Made by a program: the position numbers and the translations under genes
DNA from: a virus
Reading direction: 5' to 3' (one strand)
Virus record (IMG/VR): IMGVR_UViG_3300047157_000050
Location: 1-45,982 of that record
DNA length: 45,982 nucleotides
Notes under the pieces: model-generated
Told to the model about the DNA's origin: nothing
Seen by the model: only the letters and a program-made list of their open reading frames with translations
The model's database searches: none
In this document: positions 1,074 through 23,124 of the stretch, one piece after another
Layout: the number at the start of each line of letters is the position of its first letter
Position numbering within the stretch: the stretch's first letter is position 1

Positions 1074-1802
1074 TGAGTAAAGTTAAAATACAAGGCAACG
1101 CATCAGGAACAGGGGTACTAACTATAACTGCTCCGAATACGAGTACAGACAGAACGATAACATTACCCGACACAACAGGTACTTTGTTAGATGAGAACTC
1201 TAGCGTACCAGCAGCCAACCTAACAGGCACAGTTGCAGATGCTAGGATTTCCAGCTCTAACAGCTTCTAAATTAACAGGGGCTTTACCAGCGATAAGTGC
1301 AGCTAACTTAACAGCCATTCCAGCAGCAAATGTTACAGGAACGTTACCAGCAATAGATGGAAGCAATCTTACTGGCATTTCTTCAGCTGCTGGCAGTTCA
1401 CATTTTCACGCAATCTTTAGCTCAAGCCAATGGAACAGTTATGCTGGAGGTAACAAAATAGGATTTGATAATACTTTTCGTAATGTAGGTAGTGATTTCA
1501 GCACATCAAATAATCGGTATGTAGCACCAGCAGATGGAGTTTATTATTTTTATTATTTGATTTATTCAGCTCTAAACGATGCTTCAAATGGTTTTACTTT
1601 TAGAAAAAATGGTGCGACTACTGACCTTGTTGACCGAAACCAACAAGTAACAACTTTTGACGAACACAATGCTGGAGACCACGTCCAGACTGGTACTCTT
1701 GTTGTTAATTTAAGTGCAAACGATTACATAGAAATTTACAGTACCACTCAAAGTGATTTGTACACAGGACATTCAAATTGGGGTGGCTTTAGAATATCTT
1801 AG
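1073..1802 (+). pseudogene. Tail fibre C, left allele, C1q-like head, frameshifted
   Basis: The gene starts at ATG 1073, overlapping the previous stop. It reads to about 1252, where an extra C shifts the frame, and continues in another frame to TAG at 1802. The N-terminal half matches the fibre at 42299-43073, with repeated LTGALPAI and LTAIPAAN units typical of fibre shafts. The C-terminal 140 residues are different: DFSTSNNRYVAPADGVYYF followed by beta-strand-rich sequence resembles a C1q/TNF-like jelly-roll head. It is likely a receptor-binding fibre. The shaft is shared and the head is swapped relative to the right copy. The indel is probably a sequence error. Confidence 0.65.
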
Positions 1803-8186: not shown

Positions 8187-9734
8187 ATGCCGGCACAAAT
8201 AACAGTATTAAATCCTACAGGTATTAACAGAGACATTGACTCGTATGAACTACCAGAAACGCAATGGTCTGATGGTAATAATATACAATTTGACAATGAC
8301 AAAACTGCCAAGGTATTAGGACAACAGCAAGTATTTGGTACGCCCACGGTAGCACCTTACTGGTTACTACCTTTTAACACTACTACTACTGATTACTGGT
8401 TGTATCCTAGTTTAACTAAAATATATAGAGTAAGCACATCTGGAACTACAACAACACACGCTAACATAACACGCTCTAGCGGTGGTGATTACTCAGCTAC
8501 TGCTGCTAAGGGATGGAACGGTGGAGTTTTAGGTGGTGTTGCTATACTTAACAATGGTGTTGATGACCCACAAATGTTAGGTTCTGCATCTTCTAATTTT
8601 GCTGACTTAACTAACTGGCCAAGCAGTACAACTTGCCAAGTTATTAGACCATTTAAAAGATTCTTAGTAGCACTAGACACAACAGAGTCAAGTACACGCT
8701 ACCCATTCAGAGTTAAGTGGTCACATCCAGCAGAGGGTGGTACAGTACCTACAACTTGGGACCCAGCAGATGCAACTAAGGATGCTGGCTATGTAGATTT
8801 ATCACAGTCTAATGGAAATGTAGTAGATTGTTTACCATTAGGTGATGTTAATATTATATATAAAGAAGATTCAATCTGGTCTATGGCATTTGAGGGTGGA
8901 CAGTCTATATTTGGATTTAGGCAACTATTTGATGATGTTGGTATCCTAGGTAGACACTGTGCAAAAAGTTTCGATAACAAGCATTTTGTGGTTGCTGAGG
9001 ATGACATATATATACATGATGGACAAACTAAGCAGTCAATTGTAGACCAGCAAATTAGAGATGAGCTATTTAACTCTATGCACCCAGACTACAAAACAAG
9101 AACTTTTGTAGCTGCGGACAGAGAAAAAAATGAGATGTGGGTATGCTTTGTATCTAACACAAATGACAGCAATGCGTTTGCAGACACAGCATATGTATAT
9201 AACTTTAGAAACAACAGCTGGTCTAAGAGAGACTTACCTTATGTAAGCTATATTTCTTGGGGTATTGTAGACACGGTAAGTACAAGTGACTGGTCAGAGT
9301 CAGGAGACTGGGATACAGATAGTGAGTCTTGGGATTCACCACTTAAGCCTAGCTTATTATTAGCTGCTACAAGTGCGACCAAATTATATGTATTAGGCAG
9401 TAATCAGAATGCAGGTACAGACTTTAGAGCATTTGTAGAAAAAGATAATATGCAATTAGGTTATCCGGGAACTAAAACTATACAAAAATTAGTACCCAGA
9501 ATAAGTGGTACTGGTTCAGTAGATTTTTATGTAGGTCAAGAGATGATGCCACACGAAGGCACGACATGGAAAGGGCCATATACATTTACTAGTGGTATAC
9601 ATTCAGAGATACCAGTCAGGGCTACTGGCAATTATTTAGGAATTAGGGCTGAGTCAACTGATGCAAACACATGGTCATTAGCTAACCTAGAAATTCATTG
9701 GACTCCTTCAGGTAACAGAGGCAAGGGTGTATGA
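8187..9734 (+). CDS. Tail nozzle/hub protein (T7 gp12 / P22 gp10-like)
   Basis: 515 residues. The start MPAQITVLNPTGINRDIDSY and the long series of beta-rich blades (GGVAILNNGVDDPQML, CQVIRPFKRFLVALDT, IYKEDSIWSMAF, DDVGILGRHCAKS) match the style of the beta-propeller nozzle protein that closes the short tail in podoviruses. The position, after an adaptor across the circular junction and before a gp13-like protein, supports this. The next gene overlaps by four bases (ATGA). Assignment is by pattern and synteny, not a database match. Confidence 0.65.
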   Translation: MPAQITVLNPTGINRDIDSYELPETQWSDGNNIQFDNDKTAKVLGQQQVFGTPTVAPYWLLPFNTTTTDYWLYPSLTKIYRVSTSGTTTTHANITRSSGGDYSATAAKGWNGGVLGGVAILNNGVDDPQMLGSASSNFADLTNWPSSTTCQVIRPFKRFLVALDTTESSTRYPFRVKWSHPAEGGTVPTTWDPADATKDAGYVDLSQSNGNVVDCLPLGDVNIIYKEDSIWSMAFEGGQSIFGFRQLFDDVGILGRHCAKSFDNKHFVVAEDDIYIHDGQTKQSIVDQQIRDELFNSMHPDYKTRTFVAADREKNEMWVCFVSNTNDSNAFADTAYVYNFRNNSWSKRDLPYVSYISWGIVDTVSTSDWSESGDWDTDSESWDSPLKPSLLLAATSATKLYVLGSNQNAGTDFRAFVEKDNMQLGYPGTKTIQKLVPRISGTGSVDFYVGQEMMPHEGTTWKGPYTFTSGIHSEIPVRATGNYLGIRAESTDANTWSLANLEIHWTPSGNRGKGV

Positions 9735-9979: not shown

Positions 9980-10383
9980 TTGAAGGGATAAGGTCGGGGG
10001 ATATTGAGGCTTGGTGGCCTCTCGTTGAAGAATACTTGAATGCTGCCCTTAAATTTGGTTTAGGCGAGTATAGTATTACTGATATAAAAAAGTCCTGTAT
10101 ATCGAAGAATATGCAGCTCTGGGTAAAAATAGGCACAGAAGTAGAGGGTGCTTTTATTACAAAGATAAGTGTATACCCTCAGAAAAATATATTATGTGTA
10201 TTGCTACTGGGTGGAAAAGAATTTATGACATGGAGAGATGAAGCAGATGCACTCCTAAATGCATTTGGAAAAGAAAACAACTGTGAGTATGTAGAACTAT
10301 TTGGTCGCAAAGGCTGGGGAAAGATACTTAAAGATATTAACTATGAAGAACAAACAAGATTATTTGCTAAGGAGATAACATAA
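9976..10383 (+). CDS. gp13-like internal virion protein with acetyltransferase-like fold
   Basis: 135 residues, from TTG 9976, which overlaps the previous stop in TTGA; no ATG is available nearby. The sequence EGIRSGDIEAWWPLVEEYLN and the late ELFGRKGWGKILKD are typical of a small phage family related to the GNAT fold. Catalytic activity is not shown. T7 gp13 has the same size (138 residues) and the same place after the nozzle. A role in assembling ejection proteins is inferred. Confidence 0.55.
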   Translation: MIEGIRSGDIEAWWPLVEEYLNAALKFGLGEYSITDIKKSCISKNMQLWVKIGTEVEGAFITKISVYPQKNILCVLLLGGKEFMTWRDEADALLNAFGKENNCEYVELFGRKGWGKILKDINYEEQTRLFAKEIT

Positions 10384-11183
10384 TGTCAAAAGGTGACAAT
10401 GTAGAAACAAAAGAAAACGAACCTTGGAGTCAAGCCTCGCCTTACATTACGGAAGGCTTCAAGGAAGCGTCTAATTTATATAACAATTTTAATCCTACTT
10501 ATTATAGTGGCACTACACAAGCAGGCTTTAGTCCAGACCAGTTAACAGCCCAGCAGGGTGTAAGAGATTTTGCTGTTAAAGGTGCTCCTGAATTAATGAA
10601 CCCAGCAATAGGTGCTTATCAAAGAGGTATGGATGCTAACATGTTAGATGTAGCTAAAAACCCATATGTGAATAACATGGCACAAGCAGCAGCAGACAGG
10701 GCTATGGGAAGTTTACAGCCAGAGCTAGCAAACATTAGAGGTGGTGCTATTATGTCAGGTGGATATGGTGGTGGCAGACAAGGTATTGCAGAAGGCAATG
10801 CTTTAGCAGGAGCAGCAGATTCAGCTAACCAAGCAGCAGCACAGATATATAGTAATGCTTATGGTCAAGGTATGGGACATCAGTTAGGAACAATGGGGCA
10901 AACAGGTGCTCTTATGGGTGCAGGATTCCAACCTTATTCTGCATTAATGACATCCGGAGAATCACAGCAAGCAAGAGAGCAGGCATTAATTGCTGATGCA
11001 CAAGCAGCTCACAACTTCAACATGAACATGCCTTACCAGAAATTCCAGAATTATCAATCTGGTATTGCAGGATTCCAACCAGCAATGGGTGCAGCAGGTT
11101 CATCAACAGAGACAACACCGGGCCCTAGTATGCTTAACACAATTGGCGTACTTGGTTCTACATTGTCTGGCTTTAACCGATAG
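10383..11183 (+). CDS. Internal virion (ejection) protein, gp14-like
   Basis: 266 residues, rich in Ala, Gly, Gln and Met with few charges. It includes GGYGGGRQGIAEGNALAGAA and NAYGQGMGHQLGTMGQTGAL. Such Ala/Gly-rich helical proteins at this position are the small ejection protein of T7-like phages (gp14 type), which inserts in the outer membrane during infection. It starts in a TAATG overlap with the gp13-like gene. There is no sequence-level catalytic motif. Confidence 0.6.
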   Translation: MSKGDNVETKENEPWSQASPYITEGFKEASNLYNNFNPTYYSGTTQAGFSPDQLTAQQGVRDFAVKGAPELMNPAIGAYQRGMDANMLDVAKNPYVNNMAQAAADRAMGSLQPELANIRGGAIMSGGYGGGRQGIAEGNALAGAADSANQAAAQIYSNAYGQGMGHQLGTMGQTGALMGAGFQPYSALMTSGESQQAREQALIADAQAAHNFNMNMPYQKFQNYQSGIAGFQPAMGAAGSSTETTPGPSMLNTIGVLGSTLSGFNR

Positions 11184-14951: not shown

Positions 14952-15006
14952 AAGTGGTAACGCTGTTTCAAGTTATTTTTCATTAAAGCAATAATTAAAA
15001 TTTAAT

Positions 15007-15288
15007 ATGGCAACTAATTTCTTAGACGAAGAAGAGTTCGACTTAGATAATGCTAACACATTTCAGTTTGATGATACTTTATATAGTGATAGCAGAGTCA
15101 AAGATGATTCTATAATCTCCAGCTGGGACTTCTTCAAGATGAATCTTGGAGCAGGTCTTGAAAACTTTAACGAGTTGTATGACTCGTACATGCCAGATTT
15201 TCTTGCGGATGCTGGTCGTGCTTTATATGAGTCCGGTGCAGAAGGGATTAGAAGATTACTACCCAGAGTACCCTACTGGTTTATATAG
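15007..15288 (+). pseudogene. Giant ejection protein, fragment 1
   Basis: Start of a gene that runs 15007-18287 (about 1,093 residues when corrected) but is broken into five open segments by single-base indels. This segment reads MATNFLDEEEFDLDNANTFQ to ALYESGAEG. The true continuation is LEDYYPEYPTGLYSANDKLG one frame over, so an indel lies near 15245. The size and place suit the largest ejection protein (gp16-like core). All junction sequences remain meaningful in the shifted frame, which argues for sequencing errors rather than old decay. Confidence 0.6.
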
Positions 15289-15820
15289 TGCTAATGATAA
15301 ATTAGGTTGGGTCTTAGAAAGAACTTCAGAAGGTGCTGCAACTAATGCCGGGCTATTACTAGCTAGTGGTATTAGTCAGTCTATGATGAAGTCACCCATG
15401 CCATTAACTAAGGGTATGGGAGTAGCTGGACAGGCAGGAACTTTTGGCATGAACTGGCTACTGCAGTTTAATGAGAATGTAGGTGTACATACAGCAAACG
15501 CCAACAAAGATTTATCAGAGTTTACTGCAGAAGAAAGAGCTAAACTATTTGGAGCAAGTACAATCAATGCTTTACTTGACCAACTACCTAGAAACTTTGC
15601 AATCAAAGGAGTGGGTGGTAAGACTTACGACAAGAAAAGCATAAAAGAAATATACGAAAGATTTAGTAAGGCAGAGAAACAAGAGTTTGTCCAGTCTATG
15701 ATGGTGTTTGCTAAGAGAACCATGGGTACATCATTCAGGGAAATGCTTACTGAGTCAGGACAGACAGCAGTATCAGAACTTACTTCTGCTACAGGTGTTG
15801 AAGGATCTAAGGTCTGGTGA
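15146..15820 (+). pseudogene. Giant ejection protein, fragment 2
   Basis: Only the part from about 15246 belongs to the real protein; upstream residues in this frame are noise. It contains Gly/Ala/Met-rich hydrophobic stretches (GAATNAGLLLASGISQSMMK, MGVAGQAGTFGMNWLLQF) that could be membrane-active, then a charged helical part. The frame ends falsely in VEGSKVW. One base over, the sequence continues LRSGEQLAGAAAVGATGGAI, which places the indel near 15805. Confidence 0.55.
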
Positions 15821-16112
15821 ACAGTTAGCAGGAGCAGCTGCGGTTGGTGCTACCGGTGGTGCTATCATGGGCTCCGGTCCAGCTGGTATGGAAGCAGGTG
15901 CTTTTAATAGACAGCTAAAGAGAGACAGAAAATTACTAGAAGCAAGTAACGCACAAGAGATAGAAAAGGCACAAGAAAAGTTTACTGTTAATGTAAAAGA
16001 CTACGATAAGAAATACCAAGAACTAGTAGACACATACGAAGGTGAGGAGCTAGATGCTAAGATAGAAGAGCTTGAACCTGTAGAGGATGTTGCTTCCAGA
16101 GAATTTGTTTGA
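15708..16112 (+). pseudogene. Giant ejection protein, fragment 3
   Basis: The real part begins about 15805. LAGAAAVGATGGAIMGSGPA is a glycine-zipper-like hydrophobic segment suited to membrane insertion. A highly charged coiled-coil region follows (LLEASNAQEIEKAQEKF). The frame ends in ASREFV at 16112. The correct continuation, LLPENLFELGDAPALSGLSK, is one frame over, so an indel lies near 16090. Confidence 0.55.
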
Positions 16113-17685
16113 GTTGGGTGACGCGCCTGCACTTAGTGGCTTGTCTAAATATACTAGTATTATTGGTGACAGTTTACTAAATAAATCTACTGATTTTCTT
16201 GGTGATGTAAGAAGAGATAATGTAATGACAGGTGAGGATGCTTTTAGATTTGATAGAGCGTTGAGACCTTTAATTGATGTGGAGTCTGAGACAGGTGAGT
16301 ATCAAACAACACCGTCTTTTAATACTAAGAAGCACAACTATGTCGGAGAATTGCTGGCACCCTTTGGAGATATAAGAGATAAGTGGTCTACTGCATATCC
16401 TTTAATGGGACAATTTGGTAGTAAGATTGGAGAAAACATTGACAAGTTTGTGGGCCAATCCTTAGAAAATAAAATTGACCCTAAGTTAAAAGCCGAGCTT
16501 ACCAAAGAAATAGGCAGCAAGCAAATGAGAGAGCTTGAGCAGGATGCTAAAACAATACGAGGTATACAGAATAAAGTATATGATTTGTTAGCTAAGGCTT
16601 TAGGTAAGGATGGTTTAAAAATTACTTTTCATAAGAACTATCTAACTCGTGGTTTAGATAAAGATTCAATTAAAGCAGACCCTCAAGGTTTCTTAGATTC
16701 GTTAGAGAATGATGTTAAACTTGTAGAAGACAAACTTGACGAAGCCGGCAATGTAGTACAAACAGCACAAGAGGTAAGAGAGAATATACTTAATGATATT
16801 TTAAATGACATTGACCCTGCTATACTTACATCCGAACAAATAAGAAAGGTAAAGACAAGAACTGGCACAGGTAGACCATCATTTGAAAAGTCAAGAGATG
16901 GTAGGTGGAATAGACTTAATGACAGGTTTAGAAAGAAAAGTCCTTTTGAATCTGTAGGGGATTATTTACTTAATGCTTCTACTCGTCTGGCCTCTGCTGA
17001 ATCTTTTGGTGCCAACAGTGCTAACAGGTACAATGATGACATAAACCATCTATTAAAGAAAAATATTATTACAAACCCACAAGCTCAAAAAATGTGGGAT
17101 ATGTATGATGCATTACATAATGTATACAAGAGGCCACAAGACGAGACAGGAAGAACAAGGCAAAAAGCATACAAGACTATTGCTACTGCAGCAGCTGTTA
17201 AGTATCTAGGCATGGCTACCATATCTTCTATTACAGAACCTGCTTGGATAATACAAAGAAATGGTATAATCAATACCATGAAAGCTGCTCCTATTTTAGC
17301 AGGTACATTCTTAAAAGGTCTTAAGCGTTCTATCTACCAAGGCGGTGTTGGAACAGCACCTACCTCTTCTTTTGGCCGAGACCTGATTAGACTTATGGGA
17401 TTTGCTGTAGACCCTGCAATGAACGAGAGAGTAGAGAAATTATTTGCTGGTGACAGAAACGAATTCTTAGGGGTTTACTTTCGTACACCTGCTGGTGCGT
17501 TCCTGACACAGTACACAAACTTTGTGCGTACATGGGCTGCTGCTGCTGGATTAAAAAGAATAGAAAGTGAAGCTAGAAGATTAAAGAATATGAAAGGTGC
17601 TAGAAAGCAGAGACTAGTACAAGAGCTAAGAGAGAATGGTATGACTATTGATGACTTCCAATGCTATCTACAGAGCTGGTGGTAA
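16087..17685 (+). pseudogene. Giant ejection protein, fragment 4 (largest)
   Basis: 532 residues as read, mostly alpha-helical, with a Lys/Asp-rich middle and a hydrophobic region (TIATAAAVKYLGMATISSIT, NTMKAAPILAGTFLKGL) toward the C-terminus. This late part resembles the C-terminal helical regions of large polyvalent and ejection proteins of marine podoviruses. The end MTIDDFQCYLQSWW is false. One base over it reads NAIYRAGGNKIDVMNDAFLE, and after another indel near 17730 TKSDGTQTRVRDLLVPWLRK. Confidence 0.6.
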
Positions 17686-17765
17686 TAAAATAGATGTAAT
17701 GAATGACGCTTTCTTAGAAACAACTGATAACTAAGAGCGATGGTACTCAGACAAGAGTAAGAGAT

Positions 17766-18287
17766 TTGTTAGTGCCTTGGTTGCGTAAGCTAACTACTGA
17801 CGTGGCACTAGAACCTACTGCTACTAATAGACCATTGTGGATGTCTAATCCTGACATGCAATTATTAGCACAGCTTAAGTCTTTTCCTATTTTGTTTGGT
17901 AATACAATTGCTAGAAGAGTTATAAGAAAACTTAATCCTAAGAGTTGTACCCCTGCGTTAATGTCTCAGATGAGTACAATAGCTGCGACAGGTGCAGCAC
18001 TTGGTCTAGCAGCATTGGCTATGGAAATAAAGAAAGAGATTAGAGGCTCAGAAAGAGAGACCACTCTTGTCGACTTAATATCTGCAGTAGGTTTACCCTT
18101 GGTGGGTGAGACTTCATTATCTGGATATATAGGTGGTCCTGCTGTTAGTATAGTAGATGATTTCTTAGCATCAGCTTATGGTAACGGCTTGGCTGAGACC
18201 TTAGCTGAAACGCCAGAACAATTTTTTGATATTATATTAAGAGCTACTGTCGGTGCTCTTGGTGCCGAAGCATTTAAGGAGGATTAA
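17766..18287 (+). pseudogene. Giant ejection protein, fragment 5 (C-terminus)
   Basis: 173 residues as read. The frame is open upstream to about 17730, where it joins fragment 4 through two indels. It includes a hydrophobic helix (MSTIAATGAALGLAALAMEI) and a Gly-rich segment near VGETSLSGYIGGPAVSIVDD. The stop is followed directly by AGGATTAAGG and the next gene. It has no credible start of its own. Confidence 0.55.
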
Positions 18288-18289
18288 GG

Positions 18290-19786
18290 ATGCCTAGACA
18301 ATGTGGAATGGGACCGGGCAATGGGTTTTTACCCGGAGGAACTCTAGCTGCAACTAATAAAGAGCTCAATGATTTCTTTAAAAATATAGATGATATTGAA
18401 CAGGATGATAATCCTACTGGTCCAGATGTAGATAAAGATGGCAACATAACCTTAACTCATTTCAGTGAAGCTGACAATCTAGATGTTGTTGACCCAGACT
18501 TTTATGGTCAAGGATTACAGGGTAGTAATGCAAGGGTAAACAGGGGCTCAAATTTTGTGCCCTTTGCATCTTATGGTATTGACATGGGTAAACCTAAGGG
18601 TTACAAAAAAGAACCCGGTCTTGGCAAGGAGAGGTACACTACAAAGATACCAGCTAACAAGTTGTATAATGTAAGTGCAGACTCTAAGAATTTTAGAGAG
18701 AAAGCTAACGCAAGAGCAGCTGAGGCTGGAGAGGTGCAGGACTACAATGGATTGTTTATGGCCCAAGTATTAAAAGAGGCTGGGTATGCTGGTGTATGGG
18801 CTGACAATAGTTCTGGACTACAAGCTAGTATATGGGAAGTATTACCAGTAACAAAGCAAAAGACAGCTGAGGCAAACAAAGAAGACTTTGGAAGAATGAG
18901 GGATAACATGGGAGTATCTGATAAAAATATTGAGGACTGGACAAAGCTACAAGAAAAGAATGAATTTTTACAGCACCCTGTATTAAAGAAAATAGCAGAG
19001 CAAAGAATTGATAATCGTAATATATCAGAAGAGCAGTGGGCTGAGGCTGTACTAACATGGAATCCTATTGAGCCTATAGGAAAAGTACAAAAAATACCTA
19101 GTTATGGTGAGATGCTTAGTGCTTTAAAAATTAAAAGTATTAAGGGTCTAATTAAACCTGTGACATTACAACAACCTAGAAATAAAGCATACCGAATGGT
19201 TCCGGATGATAAGCGTGTAGCATCTCGATTAGATATACCTGCATACACAAGAGCTAATACATGGGTTGTTACTGTTCACGAGCCAGACCCAGCTCCAAGT
19301 AAAGCCGGACCAGTTATAGGATATGCTAAGTCAGCTGTTCTTGTTGGAGATTATAGAGGGCCAGTTACATTTAGTGATAGCCCTAGAGATTCTGAGCAAA
19401 TATCCGCAGGTAAAAATGAGAAAGGAAGAACGATTACTAAGTATCCTTTTGCTGTATTTACTGGTGCTTGGGTCAATGAGTCTGTAGAAACTACAACTGA
19501 AAGAGTAAAACAATATTTAAAAGACCCTGAATGGGCCGAGGTGGGTATGAATCCTAATAAGTTTGGTTATTTCTATATCAAATCAACTGGTCAAAAAATA
19601 CTTACATCACCAGAAGTGCTACAGGTAGGACCAGTAATGGTGGCTAGGATTTATCAGAATGGACAACAGGTAGCCACCATGGAAGATACTGCTTACAGTA
19701 GATTAAAAGGCACTACTGGTATTTCTAGACAGTTTGCTCAAACAGCTGATAGAATTGTTCAAGAACAGTTAGCCAGTAACTTTTGA
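18290..19786 (+). CDS. Polyvalent protein with ADP-ribosyltransferase-like domain
   Basis: 498 residues. Residues 52-190 (ITLTHFSEADNL, then VDPDFYGQGLQGSNARVN, PGLGKERYTTKIPANKLYNV, KEAGYAGVWADN) match the pattern of the ADP-ribosyltransferase-like domain common in phage polyvalent proteins. Residues about 310-475 (RLDIPAYTRANTWVVTVHE, AGPVIGYAKSAVL, AEVGMNPNKFGYFYIKSTGQ, SPEVLQVGPVMVA) match a second domain widespread in such proteins. The gene ends the ejection-protein block, so it may be injected to modify host proteins at once, as T4 Alt is. Catalytic residues cannot be assigned surely. Its end overlaps the converging gene by 28 bases. Confidence 0.6.
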   Translation: MPRQCGMGPGNGFLPGGTLAATNKELNDFFKNIDDIEQDDNPTGPDVDKDGNITLTHFSEADNLDVVDPDFYGQGLQGSNARVNRGSNFVPFASYGIDMGKPKGYKKEPGLGKERYTTKIPANKLYNVSADSKNFREKANARAAEAGEVQDYNGLFMAQVLKEAGYAGVWADNSSGLQASIWEVLPVTKQKTAEANKEDFGRMRDNMGVSDKNIEDWTKLQEKNEFLQHPVLKKIAEQRIDNRNISEEQWAEAVLTWNPIEPIGKVQKIPSYGEMLSALKIKSIKGLIKPVTLQQPRNKAYRMVPDDKRVASRLDIPAYTRANTWVVTVHEPDPAPSKAGPVIGYAKSAVLVGDYRGPVTFSDSPRDSEQISAGKNEKGRTITKYPFAVFTGAWVNESVETTTERVKQYLKDPEWAEVGMNPNKFGYFYIKSTGQKILTSPEVLQVGPVMVARIYQNGQQVATMEDTAYSRLKGTTGISRQFAQTADRIVQEQLASNF

Positions 19787-20154
19787 ATATTAACTAAATA
19801 TAGTTTAGAGGCCCTATGGTCTCCGCCCATGACAGTATAAGGTTTCATATCTTCCATTATCTTTCTTAGTTTGTCAGTATTAAAGACTAAACTACAGCAC
19901 AACTCACCATCCTTTACCAAGTTATGTACCCAGAGCTCTGCCTCTGTACTGGTCAGCCCAGATGGTTTACCATAGCTTTCAATCTCGATACAGATGTTAC
20001 CTGTACTCGCCCACTTATCCCTCTCTGTTTTTATCTCGCAAGTCTTGGCCCCAGAAAACATTTCATCTATATGTTTTTCCCACTGCTGACCAAACTCTAG
20101 GTCCACATCAAACTTACGCATCTCTTTTATATCCTTACTCTTGTTCAGTCCCAT
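19759..20154 (-). CDS. Putative PD-(D/E)XK-type nuclease-like protein
   Basis: 131 residues. FDVDLEFGQQWEKHIDEMFS is followed by KTCEIKTERDKWASTGNICI and LTSTEAELWVH. An early Asp/Glu pair, an EIK motif and a later Trp-rich strand suggest a restriction-endonuclease fold, as in small phage nucleases. This is a pattern-level guess. It is last in the early minus-strand operon, directly after the RusA-like gene, and overlaps it by 20 bases. Confidence 0.5.
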   Translation of the reverse strand: MGLNKSKDIKEMRKFDVDLEFGQQWEKHIDEMFSGAKTCEIKTERDKWASTGNICIEIESYGKPSGLTSTEAELWVHNLVKDGELCCSLVFNTDKLRKIMEDMKPYTVMGGDHRASKLYLVNIQKLLANCS

Positions 20155-21026: not shown

Positions 21027-21181
21027 ATCATCCACCCTACACACAGCCTGTCATGTGGTGGCGAGCAATTTAATTGTTGTTGTTCTACCTCTTGCTGGTG
21101 TAGCTTCTCTTCAAAAGCACTACATCCAGTTAAGCTAATAACAATAACCTGCAAAACTATTATTAATAATATCGTATTCAT
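21023..21181 (-). CDS. Small lipoprotein with lipobox, o-spanin candidate
   Basis: 52 residues starting MNTILLIIVLQVIVISLTGC. A hydrophobic signal leads to the lipobox LTGC at residues 17-20, so the mature protein would be a 33-residue outer-membrane lipoprotein (CSAFEEKLHQQEVEQQQLNC). Size and lipobox fit an Rz1-type outer spanin, although it is Gln-rich rather than Pro-rich. The start overlaps the RNR stop in ATGA. The gene is too short for most callers. If it is a spanin, its inner-membrane partner may be the coiled-coil protein at 6357-6908. Confidence 0.6.
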   Translation of the reverse strand: MNTILLIIVLQVIVISLTGCSAFEEKLHQQEVEQQQLNCSPPHDRLCVGWMI

Positions 21182-23124
21182 TCTATTTCCCTTTCTTCCT
21201 CAACTAAGTCAACTAATTCACAAACACTACCAGTACATGCCAATGTCTTTGTACCCACTGTCATATCTGTTAGCTCATACTGACTAATCAATTCCCAGTC
21301 AACAGACTTAGGCATTTTCTTAGCCAGTTCATTATATTCTTTCTTACTACAATCTTCATATGGTGCTTGTTGATATGAATGGTCCGAGTGTGGTAAGAAA
21401 CTAACACCACTTACCTCATCGAAGTGCTCATATACCCACGCACCTACCTGCATCCATTCATGTTCTCTAACACTTACAGTAACACTTGGTTTATGTTCGC
21501 AGTAATGTCTTTGATATGTAAGCCACAGTTCCAACTGTTCAATAGCAGTCCTATCATTCCTTAGTACAGCACCATCTGGAGCTTTCATAGGAAATGTAAA
21601 CACCTTAACACTATTAGGTTTCATTACATCCGGTTCACAAGGGATGCCTTGGTCCTCCATTAGCTGGGCTATGGGGTCTTTAGCATCTGCTCTTACTCTT
21701 CTAAAGTAATAATCGTTATGTCTGGTATGTATACCACTAGCACTGTCAACTAACTGACTGACTGTGCCACTAGGCTTGATGGCTGTGGTTGCAGTAGCTT
21801 GGTTAATGCCTAGTAGTTCTGACCAATGAGCATTAATTTCAACTACTTCTTTTCTAACTTTCTCAAGGAATTTTGGTAAGGCTTCCTTGTCCACAGAGCC
21901 ATTCATAAAACTATTATCCATTATACCAGTTAATGAGACTCCTAATAGGGATTCTTCTTCTGTATTTTTAACCCACTTAGGTCGTAATCTTTTAATATTT
22001 GTTAGTGATGCTTGGAATGTACCTAGTATAGTAGCTAACCTAGCCTTACGCATTATATCTTTTTGTGTGTCATCACCTCTTACTACAATCTCTGTTAAGT
22101 TACAGAACTGCCCATCTCTTAATATGATTTCACTGCAGGGATTACAACCAAAGTCATGGTCAGTATCTCTTCTGCCAATAGAAGCTACCTGTTTAATTGC
22201 TGCTTCTCTATTGAATATACCACGCTCACCAGACTTAGATTCGTACAAAGATGTCCATTCTTTCATAAAGATTCCAATGTCCGGCTTCTCTGTATAGCAT
22301 ACACTATTATTACTTAAAGCCATCTCTGGTGTATCACTCCACCACTGACCAGACTTAGCATTACGCATACGCTCATCGGTCAAATTACTTAGAGAAATCA
22401 ATGCACTACGCCTAACTCCACCCACTACAACTACCTCTGCTATCTTGCACATCATACGGTGTGCCTCATAGCTAGTTAATTTTCTACCTACTGCATCCTT
22501 AAACAAATTAGTAGAGAAGTGAAACAAGTCTAGTAAAGGCTCTGGTCCACTGGCCCGGCCTCCAAAGGTAGAAAGCCTAGCACCTTTAGGTCTTATCTTT
22601 GAGAAGTCCCACTTAGGCATCTCACCATCATAGAGATAGGTAATAAGTTTACGAAATGCAGATTGCCAGCCCTCTTTACTATCCTGTACAACAATAACAT
22701 CATCAACATCTACCATTTCTTCTGGTACCTCTGGTAGCTTGTTAACAAACTGTCTCTCTACACTAAACCCTACACCAGTGCCATGCATTAATACATATAA
22801 AGCCTCATCAAATGCTTTTGGATGGTCCACACTTAGATAGGCACAATTATATCCTGCTATATTATTATCTGCTAGTGCTTTACCTGCAGTCATTAGTGCT
22901 CTCATACTTGGCATAACTTCAAGGTTTAATACTGCATCCTCTAGTATTTTTCTTGTCTTAGGTATTAGCTCTTGGTTAGTATTCTCTTTCAAGTGTACTT
23001 CCATAAAGTCAAAGTACCTAGCTACTGTTTCTTTCCATGTCTCTCTTCTATTCTTCTCGGGTAGCCATCTCGCATACCTGCTTAGTGCTATAAAATTTTG
23101 GTAGTCATTTGGTAGTGTATTCAT
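21178..23124 (-). CDS. nrdJ: Adenosylcobalamin-dependent (class II) ribonucleotide reductase
   Basis: 648 residues, monomeric RTPR type. NCAYLSV (Cys near 94) and FCNLTE (Cys near 341) supply the active-site thiols. FGCNPCSEI near 326-333 holds the radical Cys with the Asn and Glu of the N-P-C-x-E motif. A C-terminal pair in ACTGSVCELV (about 630/635) would shuttle reducing power. The enzyme makes deoxyribonucleotides for phage DNA without oxygen or an NrdB subunit, but needs vitamin B12 from the host. It starts within the preceding gene (ATGA). Confidence 0.88.
   Translation of the reverse strand: MNTLPNDYQNFIALSRYARWLPEKNRRETWKETVARYFDFMEVHLKENTNQELIPKTRKILEDAVLNLEVMPSMRALMTAGKALADNNIAGYNCAYLSVDHPKAFDEALYVLMHGTGVGFSVERQFVNKLPEVPEEMVDVDDVIVVQDSKEGWQSAFRKLITYLYDGEMPKWDFSKIRPKGARLSTFGGRASGPEPLLDLFHFSTNLFKDAVGRKLTSYEAHRMMCKIAEVVVVGGVRRSALISLSNLTDERMRNAKSGQWWSDTPEMALSNNSVCYTEKPDIGIFMKEWTSLYESKSGERGIFNREAAIKQVASIGRRDTDHDFGCNPCSEIILRDGQFCNLTEIVVRGDDTQKDIMRKARLATILGTFQASLTNIKRLRPKWVKNTEEESLLGVSLTGIMDNSFMNGSVDKEALPKFLEKVRKEVVEINAHWSELLGINQATATTAIKPSGTVSQLVDSASGIHTRHNDYYFRRVRADAKDPIAQLMEDQGIPCEPDVMKPNSVKVFTFPMKAPDGAVLRNDRTAIEQLELWLTYQRHYCEHKPSVTVSVREHEWMQVGAWVYEHFDEVSGVSFLPHSDHSYQQAPYEDCSKKEYNELAKKMPKSVDWELISQYELTDMTVGTKTLACTGSVCELVDLVEEEREIE

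What the first reader, a model, noticed from the sequence alone, without database searches (positions are those of the whole stretch)
18290..19786. ADP-ribosyltransferase-like polyvalent protein at the end of the ejection block
The N-terminal domain resembles the ART domain of polyvalent proteins and the C-terminal domain a common partner domain. Polyvalent proteins are thought to travel with invading DNA and disarm host defences or modify host machinery. Here the gene follows the internal virion proteins and is read with them, so the product may be packaged and injected with the genome of a small podovirus, comparable in logic to T4 Alt.
Basis: partly seen in the sequence, partly recalled or inferred. 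Interest (0 to 1): 0.72.

Follow-up and report, generated by a model that had tools for sequence, protein, structure and literature searches.

The report
ADP-ribosyltransferase-like protein in phage ejection slot
A small ocean-type phage carries, directly behind the genes for the proteins it pushes into its host, a modular protein whose front half folds like enzymes that chemically tag host proteins; the fold is predicted, but neither the enzyme activity nor its presence in the particle has been shown.

Summary
ORF 18290-19786 (498 aa, strong Shine-Dalgarno, 2 nt behind the last ejection-protein ORF) is real, with dN/dS about 0.18 against a relative. Residues ~46-195 match no Pfam family, ART-PolyVal included, and profile comparison with ART-PolyVal is not significant. 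However, an AlphaFold2 model built on 38 relatives (pLDDT 82) matches ADP-ribosyltransferases: AcrIF11 (6kyf) is first in the PDB, followed by MbcT, EcPltA, PARP4 and tankyrases; phage "PolyVal ADP-ribosyltransferases" appear among viral models. So it is an ART-fold family of its own, not a PF18760 member. H57 is universal. E183 is invariant only among the five slot orthologues, and the strand-2 tyrosine is imperfect, so catalysis is likely but unproven. Residues ~258-455 are a second, widespread phage domain (RLDIPAY...DPEW...GMNP) without a known fold; the two domains are often linked, in both orders. In relatives, the same slot holds the ART domain alone, ART+second domain, or ART+second domain+a third module, all behind a conserved MPRxCxMGxxNGF leader. 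That is modular polyvalent behaviour in a LUZ24/PaP3-like podovirus. Packaging and injection remain inferred.

The parts
18276..18282 (+). Shine-Dalgarno AAGGAGG, inside the 3' end of the preceding ORF
   Evidence: read directly
18290..19786 (+). 498-aa two-domain protein, last gene of the late block
   Evidence: dN/dS about 0.18 against L002
18290..18328 (+). conserved N-terminal leader MPRxCxMGxxNGF (residues 1-13), found only in this slot gene; candidate packaging or docking tag
   Evidence: invariant in window, L002, L261, L262, L263; collection scan of the degenerate DNA pattern hit 4 contigs, all this gene
18425..18874 (+). ART-fold domain (residues 46-195)
   Evidence: AF2 pLDDT 81.7, pTM 0.78; Foldseek PDB top AcrIF11 6kyf, then MbcT, EcPltA, PARP4, tankyrases; BFVD PolyVal ADP-ribosyltransferase E 3.7e-5
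18458..18460 (+). H57, strand-1 histidine
   Evidence: 38 of 38 relatives
18572..18574 (+). Y95, nearest tyrosine to the expected strand-2 position; the consensus Y column is S94 here
   Evidence: Y in 4 of 5 slot orthologues, F in L263
18836..18838 (+). E183, strand-5 acid
   Evidence: invariant in 5 slot orthologues; variable (N, E, D, others) in the wider family
18875..19060 (+). linker (residues 196-257), fastest-evolving part
   Evidence: dN 0.098, dS 0.33
19061..19654 (+). second domain (residues 258-455), RLDIPAY...DPEW...GMNP...FY...QVGP; unknown fold
   Evidence: 484 relatives; PF25735 in 6 of 24 relatives, best E 6.2e-9; no PDB fold match
15007..18287 (+). ejection/internal virion protein gene directly upstream, broken into pieces in this window
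   Evidence: phrog_6958; intact as 1091 aa in L002; PaP3 orf19 counterpart

Best explanation
The gene encodes a small, modular polyvalent effector of a LUZ24/PaP3-like podovirus. Its first ~45 residues are a leader and flexible arm; residues 46-195 are an ADP-ribosyltransferase-fold domain of a family not covered by Pfam; residues 258-455 are a second, phage-specific domain that often travels with it, probably for target binding or substrate specificity. Proposed course: the protein is made late with the ejection proteins, enters the head or ejection complex (perhaps through the MPRxCxMGxxNGF leader), goes into the next host cell with the DNA, and there transfers ADP-ribose from NAD+ to a host protein to favour infection, as T4 Alt does on RNA polymerase or AcrIF11 on the CRISPR Csy complex. 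Shown: gene, selection, genome position, domain modularity, predicted ART fold. Inferred: NAD+ use, packaging, injection, host target.
For: ART fold: AF2 model from 38 relatives; PDB Foldseek hits led by AcrIF11 (prob 0.99, E 5.5e-3) with four further ART kinds in the top nine; BFVD hits to PolyVal ADP-ribosyltransferases, a MuF fusion and a vRNAP protein. 6kyf is AcrIF11, an NAD-bound ART with a required strand-5 acid, D115 (PMC12421852). H57 universal, E183 invariant in slot orthologues. Packaging context: last gene of the late block, coupled to the ejection gene; relatives of the domain sit in giant polyvalent proteins with LPD22/LPD38 and beside ART-PolyVal, in a protein annotated 'structural protein' in Flavobacterium elemo phages, and the second domain in giant ORFs between portal and capsid genes of CRP-9, CRP-207 and MW202701. 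Modularity: same slot holds ART alone (L262), ART+second domain (window, L002), or three modules (L261, L263). Literature: ARTs are the commonest modifying domain of phage polyvalent proteins, predicted to be head-packaged (PMC5512222, PMC9503650).
Against: No sequence-profile match to any ART family. Foldseek to PDB is modest (best E 5.5e-3, TM 0.43-0.50). The strand-5 acid is not conserved in the wider family, and the strand-2 tyrosine column is S94 here with Y95 next to it (F in L263), so some members may be inactive. No proteomics: virion presence is unknown. PaP3 has an unrelated protein in the same slot and BroderSalsa has none, so it is accessory.
Confidence: 0.5

Rival explanations
1. 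ART fold retained but catalysis lost: the domain binds NAD+/ADP-ribose or a protein partner and serves as an adaptor or sponge rather than an enzyme, with the second domain doing the work.
For: Strand-5 acid not conserved across 38 relatives (N 9, E 6, D 4, others) and strand-2 Y column is S in window. The second domain is found alone or in other contexts far more often.
Against: H57 is universal; E183, E108, Y116, Y126 and D131 are invariant among orthologues at about 36% identity; L262 keeps the ART domain alone in the slot, so this domain has a function without the second.
Confidence: 0.22
2. A structural or ejection-complex component of the virion with no host-directed activity; the domains are scaffold modules.
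For: Same slot in PaP3 holds orf20, annotated virion structural protein; an elemo relative is annotated as structural protein.
Against: PaP3 orf20 is unrelated, and BroderSalsa has no gene in the slot, so the slot is not needed for ejection. Module number varies among close relatives, unlike a fixed structural part.
Confidence: 0.15
3. A late-expressed intracellular effector that is never packaged: it modifies host or phage proteins in the producing cell late in infection.
For: It lies at the end of the late block and no packaging signal has been demonstrated.
Against: Homologous domains are embedded in giant proteins next to portal or capsid genes or in annotated structural proteins; a conserved leader unique to this slot suggests targeting.
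Confidence: 0.13

Closest known systems
AcrIF11 (PDB 6kyf), phage/plasmid anti-CRISPR ADP-ribosyltransferase
   Same: Closest solved fold to the N-terminal domain (Foldseek prob 0.99); HxS start motif and an acid in the last strand (H20, S22, D146/E147 in AcrIF11Pae2; PMC12421852).
   Different: No sequence similarity found; AcrIF11 is a standalone anti-CRISPR, this one is a late-block, ejection-slot, two-domain protein; target unknown.
ART-PolyVal (PF18760), Tox-ART-HYD2 clade of polyvalent proteins
   Same: Predicted fold, H in strand 1, modular neighbours, phage giant proteins; structural match to BFVD 'PolyVal ADP-Ribosyltransferase'.
   Different: No Pfam match in window or 38 relatives; occurs beside a true ART-PolyVal in L090; strand-5 residue E/variable rather than D; extra conserved PE.GLG..Y and LY..D motifs.
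Phage T4 Alt
   Same: Proposed logic: late-made, head-packaged, injected ART (PMC5512222).
   Different: Alt is of the R-S-E clade; here H-(Y)-E; packaging not shown; different phage type.
Phage_L5_gp82 (PF25735) / phrog_586
   Same: Weak profile matches to the second domain through relatives.
   Different: The window protein itself does not match; function of L5 gp82 not found in the papers searched.
Ejection-slot genes of Bruynoghevirus PaP3 (orf20, orf21)
   Same: Same genome position after the large internal virion protein.
   Different: No detectable similarity of orf20; orf21 not compared.

Membership tests
ART superfamily (fold) | Split beta-sandwich ADP-ribosyltransferase fold | tested here: met
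   AF2 + Foldseek PDB and BFVD; predicted model only, modest E-values against PDB
ART superfamily (fold) | NAD+ binding and ADP-ribosyl transfer | not testable with these tools
   needs biochemistry
ART-PolyVal PF18760 / Tox-ART-HYD2 | Match to the Pfam profile above its gathering score | tested here: not met
   hhalign to ART-PolyVal-type alignments not significant
ART-PolyVal PF18760 / Tox-ART-HYD2 | Histidine in strand 1 | tested here: met
   H57, 38 of 38
ART-PolyVal PF18760 / Tox-ART-HYD2 | Tyrosine in strand 2 | tested here: inconclusive
   column is Y in 34 of 38, S94 in window with Y95 adjacent; F in L263
ART-PolyVal PF18760 / Tox-ART-HYD2 | Aspartate in strand 5 | tested here: not met
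   E183 in window, invariant E in slot clade, variable elsewhere
Phage polyvalent proteins | Several unrelated globular domains in one polypeptide, exchanged among relatives | tested here: met
Phage polyvalent proteins | Encoded by a phage with portal-terminase packaging, near virion genes | tested here: met
   portal phrog_1216 and terminase, ejection genes
Phage polyvalent proteins | Carried in the virion and delivered with DNA | not testable with these tools
   no proteomics for relatives found
T4 Alt family | R-S-E active site (Alt/VIP2 clade) | tested here: not met
   H57 universal at strand 1; no Alt/VIP2 profile match
AcrIF11 family | Sequence homology to AcrIF11 | tested here: not met
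   fold similarity only; no sequence match to it in the PDB profile search
[quoted passage not shown]
   needs biochemistry; host and target unknown
LPD families (large polyvalent protein associated domains) | Pfam LPD profile match for residues 258-455 | tested here: not met

The most novel reading that the evidence does not exclude
A cargo slot behind the ejection genes of marine LUZ24-like podoviruses: a short conserved leader (MPRxCxMGxxNGF) acts as the packaging/ejection tag, an ART-fold enzyme of a new family is the constant payload, and further effector modules are added or lost behind it, so that a 45-kb podovirus delivers enzymes with its genome much as large phages do.
Probability: 0.3. 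Interest if true: 0.72.

Novelty: new variant of a known kind. Interest (0 to 1): 0.52.

Why it matters
Phage ARTs injected with DNA are known mainly from T4 and predicted from giant polyvalent proteins. Here is a compact, clearly bounded version in a small podovirus, with natural one-, two- and three-module versions in the same slot and a short conserved leader, which makes packaging signal, enzyme activity and target separately testable. It also defines an ART-fold family and a common partner domain that the family libraries searched here do not name.

Tried and rejected
Pfam, PHROGs and PDB sequence searches with the whole protein gave nothing usable, nor did NCBIfam with relatives. Weak PDB profile hits (xylose isomerase-like 4ovx, E 0.0035) cover only ~50 residues of the middle of the domain and disagree with the fold search, so I discarded them. 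hhalign of the domain against ART-PolyVal-type profiles was not significant, locally or globally; the template was truncated by its first row, so that is a weak negative. The second domain's model (pLDDT 75) had no PDB match, so no activity is assigned; a second ART domain there was considered and not supported. Homology with PaP3 orf20 in the same slot was tested and rejected. No plasmid match. Bacterial-genome hits of the second domain were only a few contigs of metagenome-assembled genomes, probably phage. The third module of L263 looked kinase-like by eye but had no PDB or Pfam match, so this is not claimed. Papers on elemo or LUZ24 virion proteomics that would settle packaging were not found.

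Full report
What is there. The ORF at 18290-19786 (+) is 498 aa, starts with ATG 7 nt behind AAGGAGG and 2 nt behind the preceding stop codon. A relative in L002 is 94% identical over its full length, with dN 0.032 and dS 0.178, so it is a gene under purifying selection. It is the last gene of the + strand late block and meets the - strand block tail to tail (19759-20154).

Where it is. The phage is related to the LUZ24/PaP3 group. The ORF at 8187-9734 is 38% identical to proteins of PaP3/LUZ24-type Pseudomonas phages, the ejection protein matches PaP3 orf19, and portal, terminase, DNA polymerase and helicase-primase have PHROG matches. Marine LUZ24-like lineages are known from metagenomes (PMC10386132). 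Upstream lie a 'DNA ejection protein' (10383-11183) and the internal virion protein (phrog_6958). In this window that last ejection gene is split over several frames (15007-18287), whereas L002 has one 1091-aa ORF; single-base differences explain the breaks. In PaP3 the same slot holds orf20, unrelated to our protein; in BroderSalsa it is empty.

The N-terminal domain. Sequence libraries are silent: Pfam, PHROGs and the PDB by sequence. tblastn gave weak leads to giant proteins of Flavobacterium elemo phages and of Nostoc and Microcystis phages, which a profile turned into firm relatives. Searching with that alignment returned 80 IMG/VR loci. The 38-sequence alignment A6 shows invariant H57, Y116, Y126, D131 and G165, and nearly invariant R82, E108, G110, G112, Y166 and V187. 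The AlphaFold2 model has mean pLDDT 81.7 and pTM 0.78. Foldseek against the PDB puts AcrIF11 first (6kyf, probability 0.99, E 5.5e-3), followed among the first nine by MbcT, EcPltA, PARP4 and tankyrases, all ART-fold proteins (the fold assignment of these named proteins is established knowledge). That 6kyf is AcrIF11 is stated in PMC12421852. Against viral models, after the family's own relatives, come a 'PolyVal ADP-Ribosyltransferase' (E 3.7e-5, probability 1.00), ART-PolyVal-like proteins, a MuF fusion and a vRNAP protein. The PDB scores are modest, but the agreement among independent ART hits is hard to explain otherwise.

Not a Pfam ART-PolyVal member. None of 38 relatives matches PF18760 even at E 10. 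In L090 the domain (residues 617-759) sits next to a separate canonical ART-PolyVal domain (783-898). Profile-profile comparison is not significant. I therefore file it as an ART-fold family of its own. Iyer et al. define the polyvalent ART active site as H, Y, D in strands 1, 2 and 5 (PMC5512222). Here H57 fits; the strand-2 tyrosine column is Y in 34 of 38 but S94 in the window, with Y95 beside it; strand 5 has E183, invariant among five slot orthologues at about 36% identity but variable in the wider family. Catalysis by this member is likely; by the whole family it is doubtful.

The C-terminal domain. Residues 258-455 carry RLDIPAY, a conserved H and Y, DPEW, GMNP, FY and QVGP. It is very common: 484 relatives in one scan. 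It sits in giant ORFs between portal and capsid genes of CRP-9, CRP-207 and MW202701. Relatives match PF25735 (L5 gp82) with E down to 6e-9; the window protein itself does not. Its model has no PDB counterpart. The two domains lie in one ORF or in neighbouring ORFs in 33 of 165 loci, in both orders. That sample was gathered by searching for either domain, and some loci are overlapping pieces of one contig, so the fraction is not an unbiased rate, but the repeated linkage in both orders suggests that they work together.

A modular slot. Three more relatives of the ejection gene or leader show what follows it: L262 has a 198-aa protein that is the ART domain alone; L261 has the ART domain, the second domain and a third HDxxGH-type domain, with the reading frame interrupted in the middle; L263 has ART, second domain and a different, unidentified third part running off the contig. 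All begin MPRxCxMGxxNGF, followed by an unconserved arm. A scan of 2.9 million viral contigs for the degenerate leader found four contigs, all with this gene. Between window and L002 the DNA is mostly 95-100% identical from about 15,000 to 18,880 and drops to ~87-95% exactly behind the ART domain, which fits exchange at the domain border.

How it most likely works. Made late with the ejection proteins, taken into the particle, injected, and modifying a host protein with ADP-ribose. Phage ARTs in such contexts are predicted to be head-packaged (PMC5512222, PMC9503650). Gene, selection, position, modularity and predicted fold are shown here; NAD+ use, packaging, injection and target are inferred. 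I put 0.5 on the full account, about 0.85 on the fold alone and about 0.6 on virion delivery.

Novelty. The kind is known; the family, the compact form in a small podovirus, the leader and the graded module series are new as far as the tools show. Paper searches found no description of this domain pair.

Noticed in passing
window 15007-18287 against L002 4723-7998: The large ejection-protein gene is intact (1091 aa) in the relative but broken in the window by single-base length differences; sequencing error or real decay cannot be told apart here.
   Followed up: partly
window ~18,880: Sharp drop in identity to L002 (about 98% to 87%) exactly at the end of the ART domain, suggesting recombination at the domain border.
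   Followed up: partly
L090 7236-8126: The ART-fold domain lies in tandem with a canonical ART-PolyVal domain inside a 2217-aa protein that also has LPD22 and a radical SAM domain.
   Followed up: partly
L261 8276-9235; also consensus of A5: A further uncharacterised phage module with an HDxxGH ... ETRGQNS signature recurs beside both domains; no Pfam match.
   Followed up: no
L263 1641-2018: A different third module behind the second domain, truncated at the contig end; no Pfam or PDB match.
   Followed up: partly
window 1233-1802: C1q domain (PF00386, E 3.3e-9) in a 189-aa protein.
   Followed up: no
window 21178-23124 (-): 648-aa ORF that reads like a ribonucleotide reductase; not tested.
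   Followed up: no
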